The notes beneath the pieces were generated by a model. The model saw nothing but the letters and a program-made list of their open reading frames with translations, did not search any database and was not told the DNA's origin. Below are positions 2 to 21,540 of a stretch of 34,185 bases of DNA, in pieces (the stretch's first letter is position 1; each line of letters opens with the position of its first letter). This DNA is from a virus: the IMG/VR virus record IMGVR_UViG_3300009161_000138, positions 1 to 34,185 of that record. One strand, written 5' to 3'. The position numbers were made by a program, and so were the translations under genes.

Positions 2-307
2 ATCTCAGTTTGGAAGCCATATGATCACGCAACTGAAAAGCTGGTTTCTGCCGCTCCGCATCTTTATGATGGAATGTGCTGTTTGGTTGCCGTGGAGCCT
101 TTGACTGCTGACGAGCTTAAAGCACGGGTTGACACGCAATGGCAAGTTATCCGCACACAGCGCAACCAGATGCTCAAGGACTCAGACTGGACGCAAGTGG
201 CTGACGCTCCGGTGGACAATCTGACTTGGGCGGTCTACCGGCAAGCGCTGCGGGACATTACCAAGCAGGCCGATCCGTTCAACATTACATGGCCTAAACA
301 ACCATAG
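2..307 (+). CDS. Phage tail assembly chaperone-like protein, 5'-truncated
   Basis: The reading frame is open from the window edge, so the N-terminus is missing; 101 residues are visible. The internal ATG at 74 lacks a Shine-Dalgarno and sits inside continuous coding sequence, so it is probably not the start. The C-terminal part carries the pattern of the Phage_tail_APC family: an R-x2-R-N-x-M-L-x2-SDWTQ stretch, then W-x2-YRQALRDI, ending in a TWP motif. Such proteins are typically encoded beside tail fibre genes and are thought to help fibre or tail assembly in the host cytoplasm; that role is inferred from family and position. It lies 8 bases upstream of a repetitive tail protein gene on the same strand. 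Confidence 0.75.
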   Translation: MSVWKPYDHATEKLVSAAPHLYDGMCCLVAVEPLTADELKARVDTQWQVIRTQRNQMLKDSDWTQVADAPVDNLTWAVYRQALRDITKQADPFNITWPKQP

Positions 308-315
308 TGTGAGTC

Positions 316-1668
316 ATGGCCGCAGCGTTTCAATCAGGCGCATTTGAACCGACTGCGTTTGAGGTTGGAAGCGCTGGGTCAATAACCGGTGTAACTGCGT
401 CCGGCGCAGTTGGTTCTGCCACTTCATCTGTAGCTGTTGGGCTTACGGGCGTAAATGCAGCAGGGTCTGTTGGTGGTTTAAATTATGTAGTGCCACTTAC
501 CGGAGACTCGGCGTCCGGCGCAGTTGGTTCAGTTACTTCTTCATTAACCATATCTTTATCTGGTGTTTCGGCATCAGGTTTAGCAGGATATGCAAGTGTA
601 GCTGGGGCTGGAGCGTTCCAGTCTGGTGCATTTGAGCCGACCGCATTTGAAGTTGGCAACGGTGGTGGTAGTGATGTAACGGTAGCTATAACAGGCGTAG
701 CTGCGTCTGGGTTAGTTGGTTCCGCCACCCAATCAAAGTCTGTTGCACTTACAGCAAATGCGGCATCAGGCTTAGTTAATTCCCCTACTGCATCTCAATC
801 TGTTGCACTTACCGGGGTATCTGCTGCTGGGGCAACAGGCTCCGTAGTATTTAGTGCTGTAATTACCGGGGTTTCTGCATCCGGCTCTGTTGGTTCAGTA
901 ACTGTTGGAGCGCGGTCAGTTGCGATTACCGGCAACGCCGCATCTGGGTTAGTTAATACAGCCACTCCAACTTCTACGGTAAGCATTACGGGTGCCGCAG
1001 CATCTGGGGCCGTAGGTTCAGTATCACTCAGTGCAACAACAGCACTTACTGGGAATTCTGCATCAGGCTCTGTCGGCACGGTAACGGTTGCCGCGCGTAG
1101 TTTTGCTCTGACTGGGGTATCTGCCGATGGTGCGGTTGGGTCAGTCACTCAGTCTATACCCAGAACTTTATCGGGTGTTTCTGGCACAGGCTCTGTCGGC
1201 ACCGTAACAAATTCGGTTACTGTCGCACTAACCGGTAACTCTGCATCAGGCGCGGTTGATACAGTAGTTTATGGACGCCCGCTGACTGGGGTATCCGCAT
1301 CTGGCTCAGTCGGCACTCTTGTTGCTGGGTTTGGAGTAGCGGGTACACAAGCTGCGGGTTCGGTTGGAATCCCAACTACTAATAGAACGGTTGCTTTGAC
1401 CGGCGCGGCATCGACCGCATCTGTCGGGACAATGACTGGTGAAGCCATATACTATGCTTCAATTTCTGGCAATTCTCTTTCCGGTGCCGTACAATCTGTA
1501 TCAATAGGGCAGAGGCTTGTAGCAATTACAGGTAGCCGTGCAATGGGCGCGGTTGGCGATTTTGGCGTTCTTTACTGGAGCATCATCAACGATAACCAAA
1601 CCCCCAACTGGACAAGCATAAATGATACGCAGACTCCGGTTTGGGAAGTTGTAGACGACCTGTTATAA
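316..1668 (+). CDS. Repetitive Gly/Ala/Ser/Val tail-region structural protein
   Basis: 450 residues, nearly all made of about 19 imperfect copies of a 17-20 residue unit of the form L-T-G-V-S-A-S-G-S-V-G-S-V-T followed by a variable hydrophobic stretch. A second motif, AFQSGAFEPTAFEVG, occurs at residues 4-18 and again near residue 100. The C-terminus changes character to a tandem aromatic motif (I-N-D-N-Q-T-P-x-W, then I-N-D-T-Q-T-P-x-W). Alternating small and beta-branched residues suggest stacked beta-strands, as in fibrous appendages. There is no signal peptide, membrane segment or enzyme motif. Position between a tail chaperone and the S74 fibre suggests a tail appendage. The start has only a weak ribosome-binding site. 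I know no family name for it; the structural role is inference. Confidence 0.7.
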   Translation: MAAAFQSGAFEPTAFEVGSAGSITGVTASGAVGSATSSVAVGLTGVNAAGSVGGLNYVVPLTGDSASGAVGSVTSSLTISLSGVSASGLAGYASVAGAGAFQSGAFEPTAFEVGNGGGSDVTVAITGVAASGLVGSATQSKSVALTANAASGLVNSPTASQSVALTGVSAAGATGSVVFSAVITGVSASGSVGSVTVGARSVAITGNAASGLVNTATPTSTVSITGAAASGAVGSVSLSATTALTGNSASGSVGTVTVAARSFALTGVSADGAVGSVTQSIPRTLSGVSGTGSVGTVTNSVTVALTGNSASGAVDTVVYGRPLTGVSASGSVGTLVAGFGVAGTQAAGSVGIPTTNRTVALTGAASTASVGTMTGEAIYYASISGNSLSGAVQSVSIGQRLVAITGSRAMGAVGDFGVLYWSIINDNQTPNWTSINDTQTPVWEVVDDLL

Positions 1669-1684
1669 CCAACCGAGGTGATCT

Positions 1685-2179
1685 GTGAGTCTGGGTTGGG
1701 GTGACAATACTTGGGGGGCAAACGGCTGGGGCGGTACGCTCGCTGCAACAGGTACTTCGGCAACAGGGAATGTCGGAACTGTAGGAGCAAACCCAACTGT
1801 TTCCATATCTGGGGTTGGATCGTCTGGACTGGTTGGTAGCGTAATAGCTTCTCCCCCTCTGTTGGGGGTATTGGGGTCTGGGCTTACAGGATCTCCGGTT
1901 GTTACAATCTCCAAAGCTATAAGTGGGGTTGTTGGGTCAGGAAATGTTGGAACTGTAGAGTATGCAAAAGTTGGGGTGCTAACTAACGTATCGGCAAGTG
2001 GTTTTGTTGGGGCAGTAACGGTAAGTAAGGTAGTTGCTCTAACGGGTGTAACGGCAAACGGTAGGGCTGGAAATGTTGGGTATAGGTATTGGATGGCTAT
2101 AGATGACAACCAAACACCCACTTGGACGGCCATCAACAATAATGAATCCCCAAATTGGGCATTGATCACGACAATTTAA
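1685..2179 (+). CDS. Short repeat-bearing structural protein, paralogue of the preceding gene
   Basis: 164 residues starting at GTG, with GAGGTG at 1675-1680 as ribosome-binding site; this is the only well-supported start. The N-terminus has the W-G-rich run GWGDNTWGANGWGG. About six units of the same G-V-x-A-S-G-x-V-G-x-V repeat seen in the preceding gene follow. The end again carries two D-N-Q-T-P-x-W / N-N-E-S-P-x-W motifs, so the two genes share both repeat and C-terminal cap and probably arose by duplication. They lie in different frames, 16 bases apart. A similar W-G motif recurs in the nozzle-like protein starting at 7612, which argues for a shared structural setting in the tail. Function beyond that is unknown. 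Confidence 0.7.
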   Translation: MSLGWGDNTWGANGWGGTLAATGTSATGNVGTVGANPTVSISGVGSSGLVGSVIASPPLLGVLGSGLTGSPVVTISKAISGVVGSGNVGTVEYAKVGVLTNVSASGFVGAVTVSKVVALTGVTANGRAGNVGYRYWMAIDDNQTPTWTAINNNESPNWALITTI

Positions 2180-2188
2180 GGACTTGAA

Positions 2189-4786
2189 ATGGCTACTTCA
2201 TATACCACGCTACTAGGGTTTGCCCTCCCTGCTACGGGGGAGCTATCAGGGACTTGGGGCGATACGGTCAATAACTACATTTCAAACTATATTGACGCTG
2301 CTGTTGCCGGGGCGCAGACGGTTACGACCGACACGACGCTAACTAAAACGACCAACGCAAGTCTTGGATCTACATCATCTCAATATGCGATTATCATCGC
2401 GTCTCCAGCATCAGCCAACATCACTATCACGGCACCGGCAGCGAGCAAGATCTACACGATCATCAATACGTCAGGGACGTACACGGTCAAGATTTGCGGT
2501 GCTGGACCCACGACAGGTGTCACACTAGGTGTGAATGAAAAGGCTCAGGTTGCTTGGAACGGTTCGGACTTTATCAAGATCAGCAACACAGGCGGCGCAG
2601 CTTCGTTCACCAACGTCACTGTTACAGGCACAACCACTTTATCTGGCCTGACAGCTTCTACGGCACTGGCACTGGACGCCAGCAAGAACGTAGTGAGCGT
2701 GACCAACACGGGTACTGGGAACAATGTCTTGTCCGCGTCTCCTACGCTAACAGGAACAATTGCTGGTGCGAGCCTGTCGTTGAGTTCATTGACTTCTGGT
2801 CGCGTGACATATGCTGGTACATCTGGCCTACTCCAAGACTCTGCAAACCTGACGTTCGATGGTACGAATTTAGGTGTTGGTGGAAGTGGAGATCCGTTTG
2901 GCAGATTTTATGGGCGTAGTGTTGGGCTGACATCATCGTCAAGTGCGTTCTTTGAAATCAATGCTGCAACAGGTAGTTCTTCAGGTATTGACTTTGGAGT
3001 AAATGCTTCTCGTACCGCAGGAATTACCAGTAATACAACGGAAACCAACTTCACTACGCTGGGCGCAACTCCGTTGCTGTTCGGTATTAACGGCTCCGAA
3101 CAAATGCGCCTGACCAGCACGGGGCTGGGTATTGGGACGAGTTCGCCGGGATACAAACTGGAGGTAACTGGAACTGCTGCAATTAGCGGGGCTGTCACTT
3201 TGTCCGGCGGTACAGCCAGTGGTGTTGCCTATCTCAACGGTTCCAAGGTCTTGACCACTGGGTCTGCGCTGACGTTTGATGGCGCTGGCACATTGGTTTC
3301 AGGGGCTGGTGGTACAGGAACAAACAATAGCGTATTGCGACTCAATGGAAGCGATGCTTCAAGTTACGGTTCGTATCTTCAGTTTCAACGTAACAGCGTA
3401 AATAAATGGACTATTGGCACCGACAGCGGCATCAATGGCGGGACAAGTGATGACCTAACAATATTTGGCACGGCATCACAACGATTTTATGCTTCATCTA
3501 CCGAACAAATGCGCCTGACCAGCACGGGACTGGGTATTGGGACAAGTTCGCCTGCTTCTAAGCTGGACGTCACAGGTAATGCACGTTTTGCCGGGACTAC
3601 AAACTCTGTAAAATTTTCAATTATTAATACTGGCGGTGAAACCACCATCGCAAGAGATGATTCAACAGGTTCTCAATTTGGAGTTGCATACGCTACAAAC
3701 TTTTTTGCAACAGGTGCTTATCCGATGTTGTTCTGGACAAACGGCAACGAACGGATGCGTCTCGACTCCTCTGGCAACCTTGGTATTGGTGGGACAGCAA
3801 ACAACTATGCGGGTTTTAAAACTCTGGCTGTAATTGGACCTGATGCTACACATTCAGGTATTGTCCGAGTCAGAACATCCGATGATGCCATTGGCATGAA
3901 TATTTATGCCGATTCCACAGGCCCTTTGTTCAATACTACAAACAATCCGCTTCGTTTTTTGATTAGCGATACCGAACGGATGCGCCTCGACTCCTCCGGA
4001 AACCTTGGTCTGGGGGTTACGCCGAGTGCTTGGACAACTTCATCAACTGCTAAAGCATTTGAAATCGGCACGGTTGGTAATGCACTTTATGGATTTTCTG
4101 GGTCAAATATAAATTTGACATCAGGTGCTTATTACAACTCAGGATGGAAATATGCAGTTAGTTCTTTGCCTGTAAGTTACTACAACCAAAGCAACGGGGT
4201 TCACTCTTGGTACAACGCCCCCTCCGGCACAGCAGGTAATGCAATCACATTCACACAGGCAATGACGCTGGATGCCTCCGGCAACCTGCTGGTGGGGACT
4301 ACAAGTTCATCGGGCGCAGGTGCAGGTATAGTTTTATCGTCTAGCGGCGTAGGTGCGTTTACCAGAAACAATGTCAACTATGTTAATTATATTAGCAATT
4401 TAACTACAAGTGGGAACGCAGGGTTTATTACTTTTCAATATGGAACAAGCCAAACTGAAATTGGCTCAATTTCAACAGCAACTGGCACCGTAACCTTATA
4501 CAACACCACATCTGACCAAAGGTTAAAAGAAAATATTCAAGACGCTGAATCTGCGTCTGATTTGATTGATGCAATCCAAGTCCGACAGTTTGATTGGAAG
4601 TCAGATAACACTCATCAACGTTATGGCTTTGTTGCTCAAGAACTTGTTACGATAGCACCTGAAGCTGTATACCAACCCCAAGACGAAGATAAAATGATGG
4701 CTGTGGACTATTCCAAACTGGTCCCAATGTTAGTCAAAGAAATCCAATCCCTTCGTATCCGTATCGCCCAACTGGAGGCAAAATGA
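2189..4786 (+). CDS. Tail fibre/spike protein with C-terminal peptidase S74 intramolecular chaperone
   Basis: 865 residues. The N-terminus (about 1-130) resembles phage fibre attachment regions (T-L-L-G-F-A-L-P-x-T-G-E-L-S-G-T-W-G-D). The middle holds at least five beta-type repeats of the form E-R-M-R-L-D-S-S-G-N-L-G-I-G near residues 303, 438, 520, 595 and 690. The last 91 residues are a peptidase S74 (endosialidase-type) chaperone domain: SDQRLKENI at 775-783, then R-Q-F-D-W and Y-G-F-V-A-Q-E-L, and a terminal coiled coil. In this family the Ser/Lys pair of S-D-x-R-L-K drives self-cleavage just before the Ser, after the domain has trimerised the fibre; Ser775 is therefore the predicted cut site. 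The protein probably contacts the host receptor. A 52-base near-identical repeat lies within it. Confidence 0.93.
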   Translation: MATSYTTLLGFALPATGELSGTWGDTVNNYISNYIDAAVAGAQTVTTDTTLTKTTNASLGSTSSQYAIIIASPASANITITAPAASKIYTIINTSGTYTVKICGAGPTTGVTLGVNEKAQVAWNGSDFIKISNTGGAASFTNVTVTGTTTLSGLTASTALALDASKNVVSVTNTGTGNNVLSASPTLTGTIAGASLSLSSLTSGRVTYAGTSGLLQDSANLTFDGTNLGVGGSGDPFGRFYGRSVGLTSSSSAFFEINAATGSSSGIDFGVNASRTAGITSNTTETNFTTLGATPLLFGINGSEQMRLTSTGLGIGTSSPGYKLEVTGTAAISGAVTLSGGTASGVAYLNGSKVLTTGSALTFDGAGTLVSGAGGTGTNNSVLRLNGSDASSYGSYLQFQRNSVNKWTIGTDSGINGGTSDDLTIFGTASQRFYASSTEQMRLTSTGLGIGTSSPASKLDVTGNARFAGTTNSVKFSIINTGGETTIARDDSTGSQFGVAYATNFFATGAYPMLFWTNGNERMRLDSSGNLGIGGTANNYAGFKTLAVIGPDATHSGIVRVRTSDDAIGMNIYADSTGPLFNTTNNPLRFLISDTERMRLDSSGNLGLGVTPSAWTTSSTAKAFEIGTVGNALYGFSGSNINLTSGAYYNSGWKYAVSSLPVSYYNQSNGVHSWYNAPSGTAGNAITFTQAMTLDASGNLLVGTTSSSGAGAGIVLSSSGVGAFTRNNVNYVNYISNLTTSGNAGFITFQYGTSQTEIGSISTATGTVTLYNTTSDQRLKENIQDAESASDLIDAIQVRQFDWKSDNTHQRYGFVAQELVTIAPEAVYQPQDEDKMMAVDYSKLVPMLVKEIQSLRIRIAQLEAK
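3096..3552 (+). repeat. 52-bp direct repeat inside the tail fibre gene (3096-3147 and 3501-3552)
   Basis: The two copies differ at only two positions by eye (50 of 52 identical) although the flanking fibre sequence is diverged. They encode the motif S/T-E-Q-M-R-L-T-S-T-G-L-G-I-G-T-S-S-P. Nucleotide identity this high within an otherwise diverged repeat family suggests recent duplication or gene conversion between fibre repeats. Confidence 0.8.
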
Positions 4787-5772: not shown

Positions 5773-6213
5773 ATGCCTTCTTGCGCTGTATGTGCTGGCG
5801 AGTTTGCCAGAGAAGACCTGATTATTCATGGTCGCAAGGATTACTTTCTGTGCCGCCCCTGTAAAGCCGATGTAAACCGCCTTGATCGGTTTGGACTGTC
5901 CCCCACAGATTATGACTTTTTGTTGAAACTTCAGGGATATAATTGCGCTATCTGTCACAACCCCCTCAAACTCAAGCAGTACAAGTTTGCAGTAGACCAC
6001 TGCCACGACTCTGATGATGTTCGTGGGATCTTGTGTAAACGATGTAACACAGCGCTAGGTAGCTTTGACGATGACCCGGATATGATTTTGAGAGCCGCAG
6101 AATACTTGAACAACCCGCCAGCCTTGGGTAGAGTCAAACGACATGATGGGCGCAAAAAAGTGTCGTTTCTACGAAGTGAGTACATAAGGATGCACGGAAA
6201 TGGAAATAGCTGA
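5773..6213 (+). CDS. HNH endonuclease, recombination endonuclease VII type
   Basis: 146 residues. An N-terminal CxxC pair (C4/C7 with C27/C30) is followed by the endonuclease VII-type His-Me finger core: C58-x2-C61, D75-H-C-H78, then R-G-I-L-C88-K-R-C91-N-T-A-L-G. In this family the two CxxC pairs bind structural zinc, and the DHxH His and the Asn act at the metal-dependent cleavage site. Free-standing phage enzymes of this kind act as junction-resolving or homing nucleases. It is shorter than T4 endonuclease VII (157 residues) and has an extra N-terminal zinc knuckle. Its ribosome-binding site lies in a hairpin. It sits just before the lysis genes, and its end overlaps the next start by 14 bases. 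Whether it resolves junctions or is a selfish mobile gene cannot be told. Confidence 0.88.
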   Translation: MPSCAVCAGEFAREDLIIHGRKDYFLCRPCKADVNRLDRFGLSPTDYDFLLKLQGYNCAICHNPLKLKQYKFAVDHCHDSDDVRGILCKRCNTALGSFDDDPDMILRAAEYLNNPPALGRVKRHDGRKKVSFLRSEYIRMHGNGNS

Positions 6214-7175: not shown

Positions 7176-7612
7176 TGGATTTGATTGGAATAGGATCAAT
7201 AATTGAAGGCGTGGGTAAGGTTGCCGGTGACCTCATTACCACCGATAAAGAGAAACTCCAGATGGCGCTCGAAGAGCGCAAACTCGATCTGGAGGAAAAG
7301 AAAATTGATCAAGCCACTGATTTGGCACAAGTGGATATCAATAAGATTGAAGCTGCGTCTACTAGCCTATTTGTCAGCGGTTGGCGTCCTGCTGTGGGTT
7401 GGGTTGGGGTGGTTGGCTTGGCTTATCAATTCCTTGGATACCCTTTGATGCAATGGCTGTGGGCTTTTGGTCAGGGGGTGGATATAATCCCAAAAGAACT
7501 GCACCCGCCGCCGGATCTTGACGTTGAGCAACTTATGACGTTGCTTGCCGGTTTGCTTGGGTTTGGCGGCATGAGGTCGTTTGAAAAGCACAAGGGTGTA
7601 GCGAGCAAATAA
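7175..7612 (+). CDS. Holin, GTA-type three-TM family
   Basis: 145 residues. The N-terminal third is a Gly-containing amphipathic start (L-I-G-I-G-S-I-I-E-G-V-G) followed by a charged helix (L-E-E-R-K-L-D-L-E-E-K-K). Then comes the family hallmark S-L-F-V-S-G-W-R-P-A-V-G-W-V at about 64-77, which opens a hydrophobic stretch to about residue 97, and another hydrophobic helix at 120-134 (L-M-T-L-L-A-G-L-L-G-F-G-G-M). This is the layout of the holin family first described in gene transfer agents. It should oligomerise in the inner membrane and release the upstream endolysin. It overlaps the endolysin and the following structural gene by one base each. Confidence 0.88.
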   Translation: MDLIGIGSIIEGVGKVAGDLITTDKEKLQMALEERKLDLEEKKIDQATDLAQVDINKIEAASTSLFVSGWRPAVGWVGVVGLAYQFLGYPLMQWLWAFGQGVDIIPKELHPPPDLDVEQLMTLLAGLLGFGGMRSFEKHKGVASK

Positions 7613-9681
7613 TGGCCCTAACCAAAATTTTGTTCAAGCCCGGAGTGAACCGGGAAAACACGCGGTATACAACTGAAGGCGGTTGGTACGAGTGTGACAA
7701 AATTCGTTTTCGCCAAGGTAACCCTGAAGTTATTGGCGGTTGGCAGCAAATTTCTAACAATACGTTTGTTGGTACCTGCCGCTCAATGTGGAACTGGACA
7801 ACACTTAACAACCTTAACTTATTAGCGTTAGGTACAAATCTAAAGTTTTACATTGAGAACGGGGGCGCGTATTACGACATTACCCCGATTCGCGCTACCA
7901 CTACGCTAGGTACTAACCCATTTACAGCCAACGGCACTACGACCGTCACAGTTACCGCCCCATCTCACGGTGCAACTGTTGGGGATTACGTTACTTTTAG
8001 TGGTGCTACGGGTACGTACGCATCTACATTAAACGCTGAATACCGTATTACCGCAGTTTTAACTGCTAACTCCTATAGCATCACAACATCTTCCGCTTTA
8101 ACTGCGGGCTCTTATGGTGGTTCGGCAGTATCCGCAGCGTACCAAATTAGTATCGGCCCTGAATACCAACAACCATTAAATGGTTGGGGCGCTGGTGGAT
8201 GGGGTGCTGGTACGTGGGGTAATGGTAGCCCTAATCCCATAGCGCTTCGTATTTGGAGCCAAAACAATTTTGGTCAAGACCTTGTATTTGGACCTCGTAT
8301 TGGGGCTATTTATTATTGGCAAGCAAGCAACGGATTAACTACTCGCGGGGTGTTATTAAATACTCTGGGCGGGACAGTGACTTTTACCGCCGCTTCCCCT
8401 GCGGTAGTTACGCTAACTAGTGTTTTATCAGAAGGCACTGCCGTTCAGTTTGCTGCGTCAGGGTCCCTACCCTCTGGCATTTCTGCGGGTACGACGTATT
8501 ATTTATTTAACGTAAATGGGCTCACTGCTAACTTACTTACTACTGGTGGCGCACAAGTAAATACCGCAACGACAGGGTCTGGTGTATATATTTCGCTATT
8601 GGTAGACGTCCCAACGGTCCAAAACTATTTATTTGTGTCGGACACAAGCCGGTTTGTGTTTGCGTTCGGTTGCAATGATTACGGGTCGGCTACGCAAAAC
8701 CCAATGCTAGTGCGGTGGTCAGATCAAAACAACGTACTAGAATGGACCCCAGATGCCACAAACCAAGCCGGTAGCGTGCAGCTATCTCACGGATCACAAA
8801 TTATTACTGCGGTCCAGACTCGACAAGAAATTGTAGTTTTTACAGACTCCACAGTATATTCGTTCCAATATCTTGGGCCTCCGGTTGTCTGGGGTACTCA
8901 ATTATTGGGCGATAACATATCCATCTTAAGCCAGAACTCAGCAATAATTGCCTCTGGTGTTATTTATTGGATGGGCGTAGATAAGTTCTACATGTATGAC
9001 GGGCGCGTGCAAACACTTAGTTGCGACCTACGGCGGTTTATATTTTCGGATATTAACTTGGGGCAAGGGCAACAAGTATTTGCGGGTACCAGCGAAGGCT
9101 TTAACGAAGTCTGGTGGTTTTACTGTTCCGCCGACTCCAACACAATTAATAGGTATGTGATATACAACTACTTAGAAAAAGTTTGGTACTACGGCACGAT
9201 GGCACGTACTGCTTGGAATGATTCTGGATTGCGAACCTACCCACAAGCAGCTACTTATTCACAAAATATTGTGAATCACGAATTTGGAATAAATGACAAT
9301 ACAACAAATACTACAGCGCCCATAAACGCCTACATATCATCGTCTGAGTTTGACATTGGTGACGGGCATAATTTTGGTTATGTTTGGCGCGTACTGCCCG
9401 ATCTGACGTTTGATAATTCAACCAATTCGGACACAGGGGCTGCCCCACAAGTAACTATGTCCTTGTACCCTATGGCTAACTCTGGCTCAGGTGCAGGGGA
9501 TCCCGGTGTTGACTACGTTAATAAAATAGCCGCCTACAATATTACTGAAGAATTTACTGGGATTGTGTACACCCGAGTACGGGGCCGACAGCTAATTTTA
9601 AAGGTTGGATCTAATCAAATTAATACTACTTGGCAGCTAGGCGCACCACGAATTGATATTCGTCAGGATGGTAGAAGATGA
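7612..9681 (+). CDS. Large structural protein, probable tail nozzle/hub (P22 gp10-like)
   Basis: 689 residues. The N-terminus K-I-L-F-K-P-G-V-N-R-E-x-T, then G-G-W-Y-x-C-D-K-I-R-F-R and P-E-V-I-G-G-W, resembles phage stabilisation or nozzle proteins that bind the portal end and form beta-propellers. Later blades are suggested by Q-E-I-V-V-F-T-D-S-T-V-Y-S-F-Q-Y and G-V-I-Y-W-M-G-V-D-K-F-Y-M-Y-D-G. The C-terminus (T-R-V-R-G-R-Q-L-I-L-K-V) recalls the end of P22 gp10. Two beta-type insertions are visible, at about 100-165 (S-H-G-A-T-V-G-D-Y-V-T-F) and 245-320. A WG-rich loop lies at 191-203 (GWGAGGWGAGTWG). Assignment to the hub/nozzle class is from pattern memory and context, not a computed alignment; a tail tube or other virion protein is possible. 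Confidence 0.65.
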   Translation: MALTKILFKPGVNRENTRYTTEGGWYECDKIRFRQGNPEVIGGWQQISNNTFVGTCRSMWNWTTLNNLNLLALGTNLKFYIENGGAYYDITPIRATTTLGTNPFTANGTTTVTVTAPSHGATVGDYVTFSGATGTYASTLNAEYRITAVLTANSYSITTSSALTAGSYGGSAVSAAYQISIGPEYQQPLNGWGAGGWGAGTWGNGSPNPIALRIWSQNNFGQDLVFGPRIGAIYYWQASNGLTTRGVLLNTLGGTVTFTAASPAVVTLTSVLSEGTAVQFAASGSLPSGISAGTTYYLFNVNGLTANLLTTGGAQVNTATTGSGVYISLLVDVPTVQNYLFVSDTSRFVFAFGCNDYGSATQNPMLVRWSDQNNVLEWTPDATNQAGSVQLSHGSQIITAVQTRQEIVVFTDSTVYSFQYLGPPVVWGTQLLGDNISILSQNSAIIASGVIYWMGVDKFYMYDGRVQTLSCDLRRFIFSDINLGQGQQVFAGTSEGFNEVWWFYCSADSNTINRYVIYNYLEKVWYYGTMARTAWNDSGLRTYPQAATYSQNIVNHEFGINDNTTNTTAPINAYISSSEFDIGDGHNFGYVWRVLPDLTFDNSTNSDTGAAPQVTMSLYPMANSGSGAGDPGVDYVNKIAAYNITEEFTGIVYTRVRGRQLILKVGSNQINTTWQLGAPRIDIRQDGRR

Positions 9682-15117: not shown

Positions 15118-18100
15118 ATGGCTCTCGATGATTGGTCTGTAGTTTCCGAAACTCCTAGCACTTCAACTACGCCAACATCCACTGGGTGGGAAGTAGTTTC
15201 CGAAACCCCCAAGAAAGCCGCCGCTCCTACCCCTGCGCCTAAACCCGTAGCTGCTCCTGCCCCTCAAGCAACGGGACAAGTTCCGTATGCAAACAGACTT
15301 CAGGCGTTAGACGACGCAGTAAATATGCTGGAGGAGAATGCTCCTCAGCAGGGAGTCCGAGATGCGTTTGCCAAAATAGGCATATCGTGGCCCGATATCA
15401 TTAAGCACGGCCAGTCTCGTGGTAGTGAATATTTCAAGCAGCAAGCTGTACCTGCGGGTATCAAACCCCCTGCTCAGCCCATAACCGGTGAAATTACACC
15501 GGCTGAAAAGACGTATACCGAAGGTGTAGTTAACGTAGGTAAACGCGCCAAAGCTGGTTTGCGTGAAGCTATCGCTAATCCTTTGTTCCAAGCTGGAGCA
15601 CTTAAACCTGACCAAGCTGCCAGAGTATTGGCCCAATCTGCACGGGACCGCGCTGCGGCTGCGCCTTCCGAAGACATCCAAGAAGGCATGATGAAGATTG
15701 GTAGCGCCGAGACTTTTGGCGATGCTGCATATCAATTAGCTGCAAACCCCCGAGCTACTTTTACGATGCTTGTGGATTCGTTAGCGGTCTCACTGCCGAT
15801 GATGGCTCCCGCCCTAGCACTTGGCCCCGCTGGTGCCGTAGCTAGAGGTGCTACTGCTGGTATAGGTTCTGGGGGCCTTGAGTATGGATCGGCTATGGCC
15901 GACGTGCTCCAAGAAAAAAAGGTGAACTTACTAGACCCTGTTGCTATAGAGAAGGCACTACGCGACCCCAAAATAATGGCCGAAATAAAGGAAGTAGGGG
16001 CCAAACGTGGGTTGATTGTTGGTGGGTTTGATGCACTTACGGCTGGACTGGCTGGGCGTTTTATGCGCCCCGCGAAAGAGCTAATTAGAGCTGGGCAATT
16101 AACTGGATCCGCTGCGCGTAATGCGACGGTGTCGGCTTGGGCTAAAGAGCTGGGTGTACAAATAGCTGGTGGTGCCGGTGGTGAAGCTGCGGGTCAAGTA
16201 GCTACAAAAGGAACAATTAATAAGCCAGCAGATGTTTTGCTGGAAGGGCTTGCTGAAGGGATAAGTTCTCCACTAGAAGTTAGGGCTGCATTGCGCGAAG
16301 CTAAAGAACTTCAAGCTGGGCGAGTGCCGGGGATTACACCACCTGCTGCCCCTACCAAACCTACTGAACCCACAATCGGTGAAGGATGGGAAACAATTGT
16401 CCCCGCTGGGCGTAAAGAGCCTGTGTTCAGGGAAGAGGGTGCGCCATCGCCCCCTCCGCCACCAGCACCTAAGAGGGACATTGAAGCGGAAGTCGCTCGG
16501 CTAAACAAAATGGGCTTTCCAATGTCGGAAGCTCGTCGCATTGCCGAGTTGGTTGGTAGAACTCCTGAGAATGCACTGCCTCCGGTAGATACATGGCCCG
16601 ATGCTGCGGTGCGTGCTACGTTGGAGTTCCAGTTAAACAAACCGGAAGAAGAGCGCAACGAAGAGCTGGTCAACCTACTGCAAGCAGAAGCCGCCAAGCG
16701 GGGCCCAATCTCTGAAGCCCAAAAGCGGGTTGCTGATGTTGCTGATGAGTTCATTGCTGCCGGTGTGCCACCACTCGAAGCTCGTCAACGGGCAGAAACG
16801 CAGATCAAAGAACAGGACGAAGCCGACGCGCTCGCGGAAGCGGAAGCCCCTAAAGGAGAACAACGTGATACAGGAACTGTCGTTACCTCAAGTGGAGAAG
16901 GCGCTGGCGTGGCTGGCGTCTCCGATACAGGAGTCCCCCCCGGAGGACCTAGTGAAACTGAGCCAAGCGGAGTGGTACCTACTTCAGAAGATGTTGGACA
17001 GCCTCCTGCTGGAGAAGTCACACAACCCGCTCCACTAGAAGACGCTCCGACTGAAGAAACAGTAACGGAAAAAGCCCCGGCTGAAGAAGCCCCCGCTACA
17101 ACTGAAGCTCCTTTTACGTTTTTTAAATCTTTGCTAGGGGCAGATGGAAATGTAACGTCATACAAACCAACTAAAGATGAACCGTGGCGGTTTACTAAAC
17201 AAGCCGTTGGGCAAATAGTTACATTTAAAGATAGTGGAACCGGCAAAACTCACACCGGTACTATTACTGAAATAGAGCAGCTTAGGCTTCCCGGTGCAAG
17301 AGGGACAACGGAACTACTAAAAATAACTGATAGTGACCCCGCGTCTGCCCAAGATAATGACGGTAATCCTGTACCCGAACAATGGACTTTGGGTAACGAT
17401 GAAATCCTAGATGTAAAAGAAGCTCCCAAAAAACGGGGTCGGCCAGCACTGACTGCGGAACAGAAAGCGGAACGGGCTGCGGCTCAACAACCTGCGGGCA
17501 AACGTGGGCGCAAGCCGCTGACTGAAGAAGAGAAAGCGGAAAAGAAAAAACAAAACGCCCCTGAACGGGCTACGCTTGCTCAAATAGTTCGTGCTGTTCA
17601 GAAACTGACTGAGCGGGTAAAGAACGCGCTTACTCCCGTAAATGAAGATGCGTTTGAGACCGACGAAGAAGTAGCTCAGGCTGAGGAAGATAAACGGGTA
17701 GAAAGAAAAGACGTTATCCGTGAGCTGCTGAAGTTCGATGCCAACCCAATCGTTCGTGGCCGACCAATCCACAAGCGGATTAAAGACCTGCTCAACAGCC
17801 CCGGCATTACTGAGCAGGAGAAGGCTGACATTAAGAAGGGGATGGAGCTTGTCAGCAAAGTAAACCTGCGGGAAGAAACGCTGCCAGCGGCGGGTAAAGC
17901 CGCTTCGGACCCAGTAGATTCGGCGTTCAGTAAATTTACTACTGGGTTAGCGGCTATCTACCACATAATTAAAAACGGTAACCCAATTCAAAAAGCTATT
18001 GCTAACCGTCTGCGCAACTCGGTCAACAACATAAAATTTGTTGTAATTGAAAAGGGAGATGAACTACCCCCGCAGTTAAAAACCCGTAAGAACGCAGAGC

Positions 18101-21100
18101 AATGGGAACGTTCCCGTGCGCTTTATATCGAGAACTACAAAACTAGAACGCGCACTATCTATGTCCGGGGTGCTTCTTTTGGTGAGTCTCAAGGCGCTAA
18201 CAACACTACGGTGTTACATGAGCTGCTGCACGGGGCTACCAATTACAAGATTGCTCTAGCTAAGGAATATATTGACAAAGGTATCCACCTTGAATCTAGG
18301 CTAGTCAAGTCGTTTGAGCGCTTGATTGAGATCATGAACTTCGCTGGGTACAAGTTCAATGAACTGTCAGCGGCTAAGAAGTTACCCAAAGAAATATCCG
18401 CCCTTGCCAACTACGGGGAAATCTTTGATGATCCTCGGGAGTTCGTTGCTTACGGAATGACCGATGAGCGTATGCAGCAATTCTTGCAAGCTACTGAAGG
18501 GTTTGACGAGGACACATACCTATTCCCTAAGTTTGTGCAAGTCATCCGTGGCTTCTTTGGGTTTAAAGAATCCGAAGTCAACGCTCTGTCCGACCTCATG
18601 CTCGCAGTCCATAACCTTATGGAAGCACCGGAGGAAGCTACTCCGCTGGAAGATACAAGTACGCAAGTATCCGCCCAAGCCAAGCGAAGTGCTGAGGAGA
18701 TTGATGACGCGGTTAAGAAAGCGCAAACTACAGTAGAGCAATCACGTGCTGGGGAAGAAGCTCGTGGGGTAAAGCTGATGCAGCTTGCCCGCGACCCCAA
18801 ACAAATGCTTGAAATCTTCCCAGCTATGTGGGAAGGGGCAAAGAACGCTCAGCGCGAAGTAATGGCTCGCCTGCCTACGTTTGACTTCTTGGCTAAGTGG
18901 ATGGGTAAAGACGTACCCATGCTTAACGATATGCACAAGAATCTCCAGAACATGACGGGTATGTCTACCAAGTTCTTGGAAGGGGCGGAGCAGATAATTA
19001 GTGCATTGCAAAAAACATTCAACGCCGAGCCAGATCAGCGGAGAAAAGTTGAAGATCTAGTTCTGCAAACTACGCTTGCTCGTATTGATCCGTCAATTGT
19101 TGCAGCACAAGAACGCTCACCCACACTTGATGCAGCTTATAGGGCACTAAGCCCCGCTGGTAAAGAAGCATACAAGCTGCTGCGTGAGTACTACGAACGG
19201 GTGCATGACCTGTACCGCCTGCTGCTCGATGACCAGATTAGTAACCTAGAAGGTATAAGCGACGAAGCAAAAGCCAAACTGATGGCTACGATCCGACTCG
19301 CTTACGAAGGTGAAGGATCGATTAGACCTTTCTTCCCGTTGGTTCGTCGCGGGAACTTCTGGGTGGCTACTGGTTCTGGACCCAGTCGGCAATTCTTTAT
19401 GTTTGAGTCACGCCGGGAGCGTAATAAGTTTGCCGGTCAATTGCGTGCAGTAAATGCAAACCGTGAAGTCAGGGTCGGCGACGATGTAAATACGTTGCGT
19501 ACCGCTTCGCGTGATGCAAGCAACATGCTCAAAGAACTTTTTGACGCAATCGATAAGCAGGACTTGACCGAGTCCGACGTTAAGGAAGGGTTGAAGGACG
19601 CTGTATATCAGATCTATTTGCAGACGATGCCCGAGCAGACGTTCCGCAAGATGTTTGTGCATCGTAAAGGGATTGCTGGTTTCAGTACCGACTTGGTCAG
19701 GAACACGGCTACTACTGCATCAAAGATGGCGACCCAACTGTCTCGCCTAAAATACGCTCCAATCCTGCGCAACAATCTGACTGCGGCTAGGTCTTTACTG
19801 GCAGATCGCCCAGAGCTAACCCCTATTGTGCGTGAAGCCCAACGTAGAGTTGAGTCAGCGTTGTCCGGACGAGATGCTGGAATTAGTGATGCTATAGCTG
19901 GTGCAGCTAATAAGCTCTCATACCTTTGGTATCTGTCTAGTGCATCGTCGGCGTTGATACAGCCGTTTAGCCCAATCATTTCCGGTATACCCGTACTTGG
20001 CGCTAATCACGGGAACGTTACTGGGGCGGCTGTAGAAATTGGTCGTATGATGACGTTCATCAACCAGTACGGGATTACCCGACGTAATCTTGACGGTACT
20101 CTTTCTTACGCTGCACCAAGCCTAGCAAACAACGAAAAGCTCCCAGACGAAGAAAGAGAAGCAGTTCGTCAGATGGCTGAGCGAGGGGTGCAAGATTCTA
20201 CGTACTCCTCGCTAGTCTGGGGCTACGCCCGTACACCTAGTGCCAACTTAAACAGTGTAGTCGGTAAAGGTAAAGAAGCTGCCAACTTGCTGGTCGGCGG
20301 GTTGATGCACCACACGGAGCGGTTATCGCGGGAGGCTTTATATCTCGCCTCTTACCGACTGGGTCGGCAACGTGGGCTTACTAACGACGAAGCAATTGAC
20401 CAAGCGGTCTCGGACGTAAACGAAGCACTTGGTGACTACAACATTGAGAACCGCCCACGCTGGATGCAGAAGGGGCTGGGGAAGATTGCCTTCCAGTTCA
20501 AAATGTACCCGTTGCAAATGGCTCTGCTTGCGCTTACCAGTCTGAAAAAAATGCTTCCGCTTCTAAACAAAGAAGGTAAAAAAGAGGCTGCAACCAAATT
20601 CTTCGGGCTTATGGGCTCGTCGCTCATGCTGGCCGGTGCATCCAACATGCTCTTCTTTAGTCCCATCATGGGATTACTCGGTTGGGCGTGGAAGCAGATG
20701 GGCGATGACGATGACTTGCCTGATGAACTAAAGGATAAAGACTTTGAAACTTGGTTCCGCACCGTGTTCTTGCCCGATACGTTTGGGCACATAAGTATTG
20801 GTAACGTCACCTTGGCCGACATCATTGACCGAGGACCGCTTAACGCTATTTCTGGTTGGGACATTGCCTCACGTATTGGGCTTAATGATTTGTGGGGCCG
20901 GGATTCCAAAGACATGAAGACAGCACGGGAGAGCTTTACTGCTTTTGTGATTGATAACTTTGGGGGTCCAACAGCTAGCTTAGGGTTGTCAATGATTGAT
21001 GCGTACGAAGCGTATGCCTTGGGTGACTACCAAAAGGCGATTGAAAAAGCTACCCCATCCGTTGTGCGCAATATTGTGGTGGCTAACAAATACGCCGAAG

Positions 21101-21540
21101 AAGGTGTAGAAAGCTCACGTGGGTCTGAACTTGTTTCCAAGGAAGCGCTGACTAAAGGTGAGTTGTTTGGTCAGGCAATTGGGTTCCGCCCTGATCGTGT
21201 TGCTGCTGCGCAAACAAGTGCGTTTAAGTTAATGGGTGTAGAGCAGCGGGTCACAAATGAACGTGCTACCTTGCTCAAGCGCTTAAACATTGAGCACAAG
21301 AATGCGGAAAAGACCGACAACTACGACCGATTTGATGCTTTGATCGCCGACGAACTTCCCAAGTTCAACGGCAAGAACCCCGAGAACGCTATTGATGCAG
21401 ATGACATTTACAACTCAATCCTTAAACGGGCTGAGCTGCGGGGGTCTGAGCGTGCCGGAGTTGCTCTTACCGAGAAGAACGCTAGGGTTATGCGTGACTC
21501 GGTTGAGAATATGAAAAAGATGCTTGAACGCGGCGAATAA
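15118..21540 (+). CDS. Giant polyvalent virion protein (2140 aa) with AT-hook-like motifs and HELLH zincin-like motif
   Basis: The N-terminus has two V-V-S-E-T-P motifs (5-13, 23-31). A hydrophobic Ala/Gly-rich region at about 215-250 could insert in a membrane. A Pro/Glu-rich linker spans about 400-640. Two AT-hook-like motifs, KKRGRP (771-776) and KRGRKP (795-800), lie in a lysine-rich helix. HELLH at 1034-1038, with E1108 in R-E-F-V-A-Y-G-M-T-D as a candidate third ligand, fits a zinc metallopeptidase of the kind found in large polyvalent phage and mobile-element proteins. A long helical region follows, then a hydrophobic patch at 1829-1861 and a charged helical end. It ends the late operon. 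I infer an ejected internal protein that handles DNA or opens the cell envelope; I saw no lytic transglycosylase motif. Catalytic activity is unproven. Confidence 0.75.
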   Translation: MALDDWSVVSETPSTSTTPTSTGWEVVSETPKKAAAPTPAPKPVAAPAPQATGQVPYANRLQALDDAVNMLEENAPQQGVRDAFAKIGISWPDIIKHGQSRGSEYFKQQAVPAGIKPPAQPITGEITPAEKTYTEGVVNVGKRAKAGLREAIANPLFQAGALKPDQAARVLAQSARDRAAAAPSEDIQEGMMKIGSAETFGDAAYQLAANPRATFTMLVDSLAVSLPMMAPALALGPAGAVARGATAGIGSGGLEYGSAMADVLQEKKVNLLDPVAIEKALRDPKIMAEIKEVGAKRGLIVGGFDALTAGLAGRFMRPAKELIRAGQLTGSAARNATVSAWAKELGVQIAGGAGGEAAGQVATKGTINKPADVLLEGLAEGISSPLEVRAALREAKELQAGRVPGITPPAAPTKPTEPTIGEGWETIVPAGRKEPVFREEGAPSPPPPPAPKRDIEAEVARLNKMGFPMSEARRIAELVGRTPENALPPVDTWPDAAVRATLEFQLNKPEEERNEELVNLLQAEAAKRGPISEAQKRVADVADEFIAAGVPPLEARQRAETQIKEQDEADALAEAEAPKGEQRDTGTVVTSSGEGAGVAGVSDTGVPPGGPSETEPSGVVPTSEDVGQPPAGEVTQPAPLEDAPTEETVTEKAPAEEAPATTEAPFTFFKSLLGADGNVTSYKPTKDEPWRFTKQAVGQIVTFKDSGTGKTHTGTITEIEQLRLPGARGTTELLKITDSDPASAQDNDGNPVPEQWTLGNDEILDVKEAPKKRGRPALTAEQKAERAAAQQPAGKRGRKPLTEEEKAEKKKQNAPERATLAQIVRAVQKLTERVKNALTPVNEDAFETDEEVAQAEEDKRVERKDVIRELLKFDANPIVRGRPIHKRIKDLLNSPGITEQEKADIKKGMELVSKVNLREETLPAAGKAASDPVDSAFSKFTTGLAAIYHIIKNGNPIQKAIANRLRNSVNNIKFVVIEKGDELPPQLKTRKNAEQWERSRALYIENYKTRTRTIYVRGASFGESQGANNTTVLHELLHGATNYKIALAKEYIDKGIHLESRLVKSFERLIEIMNFAGYKFNELSAAKKLPKEISALANYGEIFDDPREFVAYGMTDERMQQFLQATEGFDEDTYLFPKFVQVIRGFFGFKESEVNALSDLMLAVHNLMEAPEEATPLEDTSTQVSAQAKRSAEEIDDAVKKAQTTVEQSRAGEEARGVKLMQLARDPKQMLEIFPAMWEGAKNAQREVMARLPTFDFLAKWMGKDVPMLNDMHKNLQNMTGMSTKFLEGAEQIISALQKTFNAEPDQRRKVEDLVLQTTLARIDPSIVAAQERSPTLDAAYRALSPAGKEAYKLLREYYERVHDLYRLLLDDQISNLEGISDEAKAKLMATIRLAYEGEGSIRPFFPLVRRGNFWVATGSGPSRQFFMFESRRERNKFAGQLRAVNANREVRVGDDVNTLRTASRDASNMLKELFDAIDKQDLTESDVKEGLKDAVYQIYLQTMPEQTFRKMFVHRKGIAGFSTDLVRNTATTASKMATQLSRLKYAPILRNNLTAARSLLADRPELTPIVREAQRRVESALSGRDAGISDAIAGAANKLSYLWYLSSASSALIQPFSPIISGIPVLGANHGNVTGAAVEIGRMMTFINQYGITRRNLDGTLSYAAPSLANNEKLPDEEREAVRQMAERGVQDSTYSSLVWGYARTPSANLNSVVGKGKEAANLLVGGLMHHTERLSREALYLASYRLGRQRGLTNDEAIDQAVSDVNEALGDYNIENRPRWMQKGLGKIAFQFKMYPLQMALLALTSLKKMLPLLNKEGKKEAATKFFGLMGSSLMLAGASNMLFFSPIMGLLGWAWKQMGDDDDLPDELKDKDFETWFRTVFLPDTFGHISIGNVTLADIIDRGPLNAISGWDIASRIGLNDLWGRDSKDMKTARESFTAFVIDNFGGPTASLGLSMIDAYEAYALGDYQKAIEKATPSVVRNIVVANKYAEEGVESSRGSELVSKEALTKGELFGQAIGFRPDRVAAAQTSAFKLMGVEQRVTNERATLLKRLNIEHKNAEKTDNYDRFDALIADELPKFNGKNPENAIDADDIYNSILKRAELRGSERAGVALTEKNARVMRDSVENMKKMLERGE

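What the first reader, a model, noticed from the sequence alone, without database searches (positions are those of the whole stretch)
316..2179. Two adjacent tail proteins made of about 25 copies of one short beta-type repeat
Both genes are built from units of the form G-V-S-A-S-G-S-V-G-S-V-T and both end in a duplicated D-N-Q-T-P-x-W cap. They are in different frames with a GTG restart between them, so they look like a duplicated or split fibrous appendage. I know no named family for this repeat. It could be a length-variable tail spike or surface-binding array.
Basis: partly seen in the sequence, partly recalled or inferred. Interest (0 to 1): 0.6.

Follow-up and report, generated by a model that had tools for sequence, protein, structure and literature searches.

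The report
Phage tail rods with docking caps
Two neighbouring genes of an uncultured short-tailed phage encode rod-like tail proteins, each made of many copies of a 20-residue unit between two conserved aromatic end caps; the start cap also occurs in the phage's tail nozzle, so these proteins are probably length-adjustable connectors that hold tail fibres.

Summary
In detail: ORF A (316-1668, 450 aa) and ORF B (1685-2179, 164 aa) hold 19 + 6 = 25 units of about 20 aa (VALTGVSASGSVGSVT), far beyond shuffles, and both end in a Trp/DNQTPxW ladder. They are two separate genes, not a split one, and not a recent duplication: each is closer to its own orthologues in other phages. The family is widespread in freshwater and marine phage contigs (287 distinct proteins here; isolates include SAR11 phage HTVC023P gp68) and has no real Pfam, PHROGs or NCBIfam family. 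Architecture: an N-cap of exactly three 5-spaced aromatics (WGxxxWGxxxWG, AFxxxAFxxxAF or YG...), then 3-68 units whose spacing is almost always even, then Trp every 10-11 residues. Repeat number varies between relatives with near-identical ends. The gene normally lies just before a tail-fibre gene. The new finding: the same triad sits inside the nozzle protein (window 8185-8220; 157 of 172 nozzles), and Tyr-triad nozzles occur only with Tyr-triad tail proteins. In phage SU10 three nozzle tryptophans dock one trimeric fibre, so the triad is probably a docking peptide for a trimeric fibre and the repeats a swappable spacer. Rod fold and docking are inferred; AlphaFold confidence was low.

The parts
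316..1668 (+). ORF A, repeat tail protein, 450 aa, 19 units
325..369 (+). A: first aromatic triad AFQSGAFEPTAFEVG (residues 4-18)
388..612 (+). A: first repeat array, 4 units
613..657 (+). A: second, internal triad AFQSGAFEPTAFEVG (residues 100-114); differs from the first by 9 synonymous nucleotides and no amino acid
676..1569 (+). A: second repeat array, 15 units
1573..1665 (+). A: C-terminal Trp ladder YWSIINDNQTPNWTSINDTQTPVWEVVDDLL (W421, W432, W443)
1675..1682 (+). Shine-Dalgarno-like GAGGTGAT of ORF B
   Evidence: read directly
1685..2179 (+). ORF B, repeat tail protein, 164 aa, 6 units
1685..1735 (+). B: aromatic triad VSLGWGDNTWGANGWGG (W5, W10, W15)
1736..2077 (+). B: repeat array, 6 units
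2081..2176 (+). B: C-terminal Trp ladder YRYWMAIDDNQTPTWTAINNNESPNWALITTI
2189..4786 (+). adjacent tail-fibre gene: conserved N-terminus (LLGFALPATGELSGTWGDTVN in the window) and C-terminal Peptidase_S74 chaperone; proposed docking partner
2..307 (+). tail fibre assembly chaperone (Phage_tail_APC), cut by the window start
7612..9681 (+). nozzle-like virion protein (phrog_3287; related to chain Y of PDB 9nwi)
8185..8220 (+). aromatic triad WGAGGWGAGTWG inside the nozzle (W192, W197, W202)

Best explanation
A and B are two members of one widespread, unnamed family of modular tail proteins of short-tailed environmental phages. Each has an aromatic-triad cap, a rod of 18-22-residue units that probably form short beta hairpins, and a C-terminal tryptophan ladder. 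The triad is most likely a docking peptide of a single chain whose three aromatic side chains fill the three equivalent pockets at the base of one trimeric tail fibre, as the three tryptophans of the SU10 nozzle do. The nozzle of this phage has one such site, B one and A two. The repeat array is then a spacer of adjustable length that carries extra fibres, or holds them away from the tail. Shown: the repeats, the three-part architecture, tail synteny, whole-unit length variation, the triad in both nozzle and repeat proteins with nearly always exactly three aromatics, and the swapping of the inner repeat between constant caps. Inferred: the rod fold, docking to the trimeric fibre encoded next door, and presence in the virion.
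For: Repeat and period. Family: 287 distinct proteins, 3-68 units each, spacing even in about 94% of neighbouring pairs (18, 20 or 22; none at 19, one at 17), as expected if a hairpin grows one residue pair at a time. Length variation: 210 protein pairs with near-identical ends but different lengths; the larger steps cluster near multiples of 20-22 aa. N-cap: 201 of 270 complete proteins have exactly three 5-spaced aromatics and 3 have four; 2.5% of shuffled caps reach three. Ladder length is three in 230 of 236 cases in repeat proteins and 161 of 162 in nozzles. The internal triad of A is identical in protein with 9 synonymous nucleotide differences, so it is under selection. Nozzle triad: 157 of 172 distinct nozzles, against 2.4% of shuffles; in most of the 15 misses the visible stretch shows GWG..WG, in some followed by an insertion. 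Residue match: YYY nozzles only with Y-type caps, WWW nozzles with W, F or aliphatic caps and never Y. 241 of 261 repeat genes have a gene with a fibre-type N-terminal motif directly downstream, or in three cases the B paralogue. Other proteins keep both caps but have a different 20-aa repeat. SU10 precedent: nozzle Trp839, 847 and 857 in pseudo-threefold symmetry, each touching one chain of the trimeric short fibre (PMC9509320).
Against: The Y/W match between nozzle and cap follows two nozzle lineages, so it may be shared ancestry rather than a shared partner. SU10's tryptophans are spaced 8 and 10 and lie near the nozzle C-terminus; here they are spaced 5 and 5 at about residue 100-290. Seven of 36 nozzle loci with at least 8 kb upstream show no triad or repeat protein there. 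The ladder at the other end has 2, 3, 4 or 6 Trp, so it is not tied to three. No structure: AlphaFold2 pLDDT 39 and 44. No virion proteomics was found, and the partner was not tested directly.
Confidence: 0.5

Rival explanations
1. The repeat proteins are themselves trimeric tail fibres or spikes: the triad anchors each chain to the tail, the repeats form a trimeric beta shaft, and the Trp ladder is the distal, surface-binding tip.
For: Tail synteny, beta-like alternating repeat, length variation, conserved N-terminal cap on proteins with different interiors.
Against: The C-terminus is one of the most conserved parts across phages (W421 invariant, W432 and W443 at least 90%), unlike a receptor-binding tip; no trimerisation or chaperone domain; a single chain already carries exactly three aromatics, which suits pseudo-threefold docking better than a threefold homotrimer; the next gene encodes a proper S74 fibre.
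Confidence: 0.25
2. A single-chain beta-solenoid decoration or glue protein with structural or unspecific surface-binding function; the triad in nozzle and repeat proteins is a generic aromatic-glycine anchor to another tail protein, not a fibre dock.
For: Monomer models show short strands in register with the 20-residue period, and weak fold matches include a beta-helical antifreeze protein.
Against: All those models and matches are below reliable confidence (no match with E under 0.001); the triad is nearly always three long in two unrelated protein families.
Confidence: 0.2
3. A low-complexity, fast-evolving filler protein without a specific partner; the caps reflect compositional bias.
For: Simple composition (Ala, Ser, Gly, Val and Thr make up about 73% of A).
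Against: Strict conservation of caps, even-number spacing, synonymous-only change between the two triads of A, and conserved gene position.
Confidence: 0.05

Closest known systems
Fibre dock loop of the nozzle protein gp17 of Escherichia phage SU10 (PMC9509320)
   Same: Three aromatic residues on one chain of a tail protein; the nozzle of this phage group carries such a trio; SU10-type adaptor genes in the same cluster
   Different: Spacing 8 and 10 rather than 5 and 5, different place in the nozzle, and the SU10 stretch searched showed no 5-spaced triad and no repeat protein
Pelagibacter phage HTVC023P gp68, HTVC027P gp68, phage DSL-LC04 hypothetical protein, Roseobacter phage CRP-901 gp53
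   Same: Members of, or relatives within, the same repeat family, with a triad-bearing nozzle in the same genome
   Different: Divergent repeats; HTVC023P has an aliphatic (L/I/I) instead of aromatic triad; CRP-901 carries its triad at the C-terminus; all annotated as hypothetical
BACON-domain tandem repeats of crAss-like phages (PMC6949934)
   Same: Tandem repeat in a phage protein
   Different: Full-size globular domains, not 20-aa units; no triad caps (from general knowledge; only the abstract was seen)
Adenovirus-type triple beta-spiral and other fibrous beta shafts
   Same: Short beta repeats with conserved Gly and variable loops (general knowledge)
   Different: No sequence relation found; repeat length and hydrophobic pattern differ; fold not determined here
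IgA1 protease of Streptococcus pneumoniae (PDB 7uvk), TGVQAG repeats
   Same: 20-residue TGVQAG-type repeats; profile match E 8e-7
   Different: Composition-driven match to an unrelated cell-surface protein; no caps; probably convergent

Membership tests
Peptidase_S74 tail fibre | C-terminal S74 intramolecular chaperone domain (PF13884) | tested here: not met
   No Pfam match in A or B; the domain is in the next gene
Tail spike or receptor-binding fibre | Encoded in the tail gene cluster | tested here: met
Tail spike or receptor-binding fibre | Variable distal receptor-binding domain | tested here: not met
   C-terminus is the conserved Trp ladder
Tail spike or receptor-binding fibre | Homotrimer | not testable with these tools
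   No multimer prediction; monomer models at pLDDT 39 and 44
SU10-type fibre dock loop | Three aromatic residues on one chain | tested here: met
   Ladder length three in 230 of 236 repeat-protein and 161 of 162 nozzle ladders
SU10-type fibre dock loop | Same place and spacing in the nozzle (SU10 residues 839-857, spacing 8 and 10) | tested here: not met
   Window nozzle residues 192-202, spacing 5 and 5
SU10-type fibre dock loop | Contacts one trimeric fibre | not testable with these tools
   Needs a multimer model or structure
Curlin (CsgA) repeat fibre | Curlin repeat family match in Pfam | tested here: not met
   No match of any Pfam family for A or B up to E 1
Any named phage protein family (PHROGs, Pfam, NCBIfam) | Profile match shared by several members | tested here: not met
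   62 diverse members: no family matched more than one member; NCBIfam none for 8 proteins

The most novel reading that the evidence does not exclude
A portable three-aromatic docking peptide, used by the tail nozzle and copied onto the ends and interior of repeat rods of adjustable length, lets short-tailed environmental phages string several trimeric tail fibres on one protein: a branched fibre architecture not described so far.
Probability: 0.35. Interest if true: 0.72.

Novelty: new variant of a known kind. Interest (0 to 1): 0.56.

Why it matters
The family occurs in phages of SAR11, Roseobacter and freshwater bacteria and is annotated only as 'hypothetical protein'. If the triad is a fibre dock, it gives a sequence signature for finding where fibres attach and how many a virion can carry, and it makes the architecture of uncultured phages readable from sequence. 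The swap of the inner repeat between constant caps is a clear case of modular evolution of a phage appendage.

Tried and rejected
AlphaFold2 on B and A with family alignments: pLDDT 39 and 44, unusable beyond strand register; Foldseek against the PDB: no match with E under 0.001. Coupling analysis on adjacent units: same-column couplings were about as strong or stronger at two units' distance as at one, so they mostly reflect shared ancestry and do not settle solenoid versus hairpin. PDB sequence hits (antibody chains, 26dk_M, EutS, IgA1 protease) judged composition-driven. Stray Pfam hits (PCuAC, CdhC, Spt5 CTD), each in one member, judged chance. Curli repeats considered because HTVC023P-type phages carry curli genes (PMC9599517): no Pfam support. 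Programmed frameshift joining A and B: rejected, both have complete caps and B has its own ribosome-binding site. A genome-collection scan gave one hit, a locus in a Dehalococcoidia MAG, not followed for host assignment. Literature searches for the motifs found nothing.

Full report
CHECK OF THE OBSERVATION. The window lies in an IMG/VR virus record. They contain 19 and 6 units, 25 in all, of a 20-residue repeat with core [VI]-x-[LI]-T-G-V-x-A-x-G-x-V-G-[ST]-V. Lag-20 self-similarity exceeds every one of 500 shuffles in both proteins, while the neighbouring fibre gene shows none. Units are 42% identical in protein and 48% in DNA on average, so the array is old. Both proteins end in a duplicated [DN]-x-[QE]-[ST]-P-x-W motif.

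TWO GENES. A has a full C-terminal cap and a stop codon. B has its own ribosome-binding-like site GAGGTGAT (1675-1682) before its GTG start. Among 270 complete family proteins the best blastp partners of A are A-type proteins with AF caps from other phages, and those of B are WG-capped proteins; A and B rank 203rd and 56th for each other. A and B stand side by side in three genome types (window or L002, L009, L003); other relatives have only one. This is coexistence of two subfamilies, not a split gene and not a recent duplication.

FAMILY. Six scans of IMG/VR with family proteins gave 287 distinct proteins with 3 to 68 units. Among isolates and named records it is in Pelagibacter phages HTVC023P and HTVC027P, phage DSL-LC04, Roseobacter phages CRP-901 and CRP-902 and the assembled genome ct7L0027. 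None of 62 diverse members shares a Pfam or PHROGs family with another, NCBIfam gives nothing, and no paper in the library holds the motifs. It is an unnamed family.

ARCHITECTURE. (i) N-cap: three bulky aromatics five residues apart. Of 270 complete proteins 201 have exactly three and 3 have four; shuffled caps reach three in 2.5%. HTVC023P-type proteins show aliphatic residues (L, I, I) at the same spacing. (ii) The array: unit spacings 18 (110), 20 (1023), 22 (1242), 21 (148), 19 (none) and 17 (one). Steps of two suggest a beta hairpin that gains or loses a residue pair; this is inference. (iii) C-cap: Trp every 10 or 11 residues, mostly 2, 3, 4 or 6 of them. Caps can also be internal: A has a second AFQSGAFEPTAFEVG at residues 100-114, identical in protein to the first but with nine synonymous nucleotide differences; 16 of 270 proteins have an internal triad, and L127 has seven. 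Pairs of proteins with near-identical ends differ by about 20-22, 40-44, 58-66, 101-105 or 276-279 residues, i.e. by whole units.

SURROUNDINGS. Upstream genes include an SU10-type adaptor, phrog_644 proteins and, in the window group, a tail chaperone. Directly downstream, 241 of 261 repeat genes have a gene with a fibre-type N-terminal motif such as LLGLALPxTGxxSGTWGxxVN, LKIQLMTTGENxTTWG or NLLLTKPEVGASTDTWGTKIN (in three of these cases it is the B-type paralogue); in the window it is an 865-aa protein with a C-terminal S74 chaperone. The window nozzle (7612-9681) is related to chain Y of PDB 9nwi and to 135 phage records.

THE LINK TO THE NOZZLE. The window nozzle contains WGAGGWGAGTWG at 8185-8220, the same triad as the N-cap of B. 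A triad is found in 157 of 172 distinct nozzles (shuffles 2.4%). In most of the 15 exceptions the visible stretch shows GWG..WG, in some followed by an insertion (L003). Ladders are three long in 161 of 162 nozzle cases and 230 of 236 repeat-protein cases. Nozzles of one lineage have YGxxxYGxxxYG, and their phages' tail proteins have Y-type triads; W-triad nozzles go with W, F or aliphatic caps, never Y. Because the two nozzle types are separate lineages, this match is suggestive and not proof of a shared partner.

CAPS CONSTANT, INTERIOR SWAPPED. Of 36 nozzle loci with at least 8 kb upstream, 18 have a protein of this repeat family, 11 have a triad-bearing protein without this repeat, and 7 have neither. 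Several of the second kind keep both the triad and the Trp ladder but carry a different repeat with exactly 20 residues per unit (SVSETATGTDAISSVPIYVA; GAFAVSSTSTVAADANVVKS). Function therefore seems to sit in the caps, with the array as a rod or spacer.

MECHANISM. In SU10 the nozzle carries a fibre dock loop whose Trp839, 847 and 857 are arranged in pseudo-threefold symmetry, each against one chain of the trimeric short fibre (PMC9509320). A single chain with exactly three regularly spaced aromatics, present in the nozzle and in the protein encoded just before the fibre, fits the same logic: the triad fills three equivalent pockets of a trimeric fibre base. Then the nozzle bears one dock, B one, A two, and the array sets their distance. 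Differences from SU10 (spacing, place in the nozzle) forbid calling it the same loop; it may work like it.

LIMITS. Structure predictions failed to reach useful confidence, coupling analysis was inconclusive, trimers could not be modelled, and no virion proteomics was found. The docking mechanism is a proposal at about even odds; the family, its architecture, its tail context and the triad shared with the nozzle are solid.

Noticed in passing
window 15118-21540 (+): A 2140-aa ORF whose C-terminal part matches PHROG phrog_10089 'DarB-like antirestriction' (E 7e-66), in the virion gene region; may be an injected protein.
   Followed up: no
window 5773-6213 (+): An endonuclease VII-like (HNH) gene sits between the tail-fibre and lysis genes; relatives have it in the same place.
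   Followed up: no
L042, L049, L494, L556, L580: Tail proteins with the same triad and Trp-ladder caps but unrelated repeats of exactly 20 residues.
   Followed up: partly
L127:5941-8034: A 697-aa repeat protein with seven WGxxxWGxxxWG triads alternating with repeats, which would be a seven-dock rod under the proposed mechanism.
   Followed up: no
L092:1147-6876: A 1909-aa member with 60 to 68 units and about 12 C-terminal tryptophans, the longest found.
   Followed up: no
L444:5439-6428 (Roseobacter phage CRP-901 gp53): Repeat-bearing protein with the triad at its C-terminus instead of the N-terminus.
   Followed up: no
PDB 7uvk, IgA1 protease: Its 20-residue TGVQAG repeats match the family profile (E 8e-7); probably convergence.
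   Followed up: partly
L133 (CP070693.1, Dehalococcoidia MAG): The only hit in the genome collection; not checked whether it is a prophage or a binning artefact.
   Followed up: no
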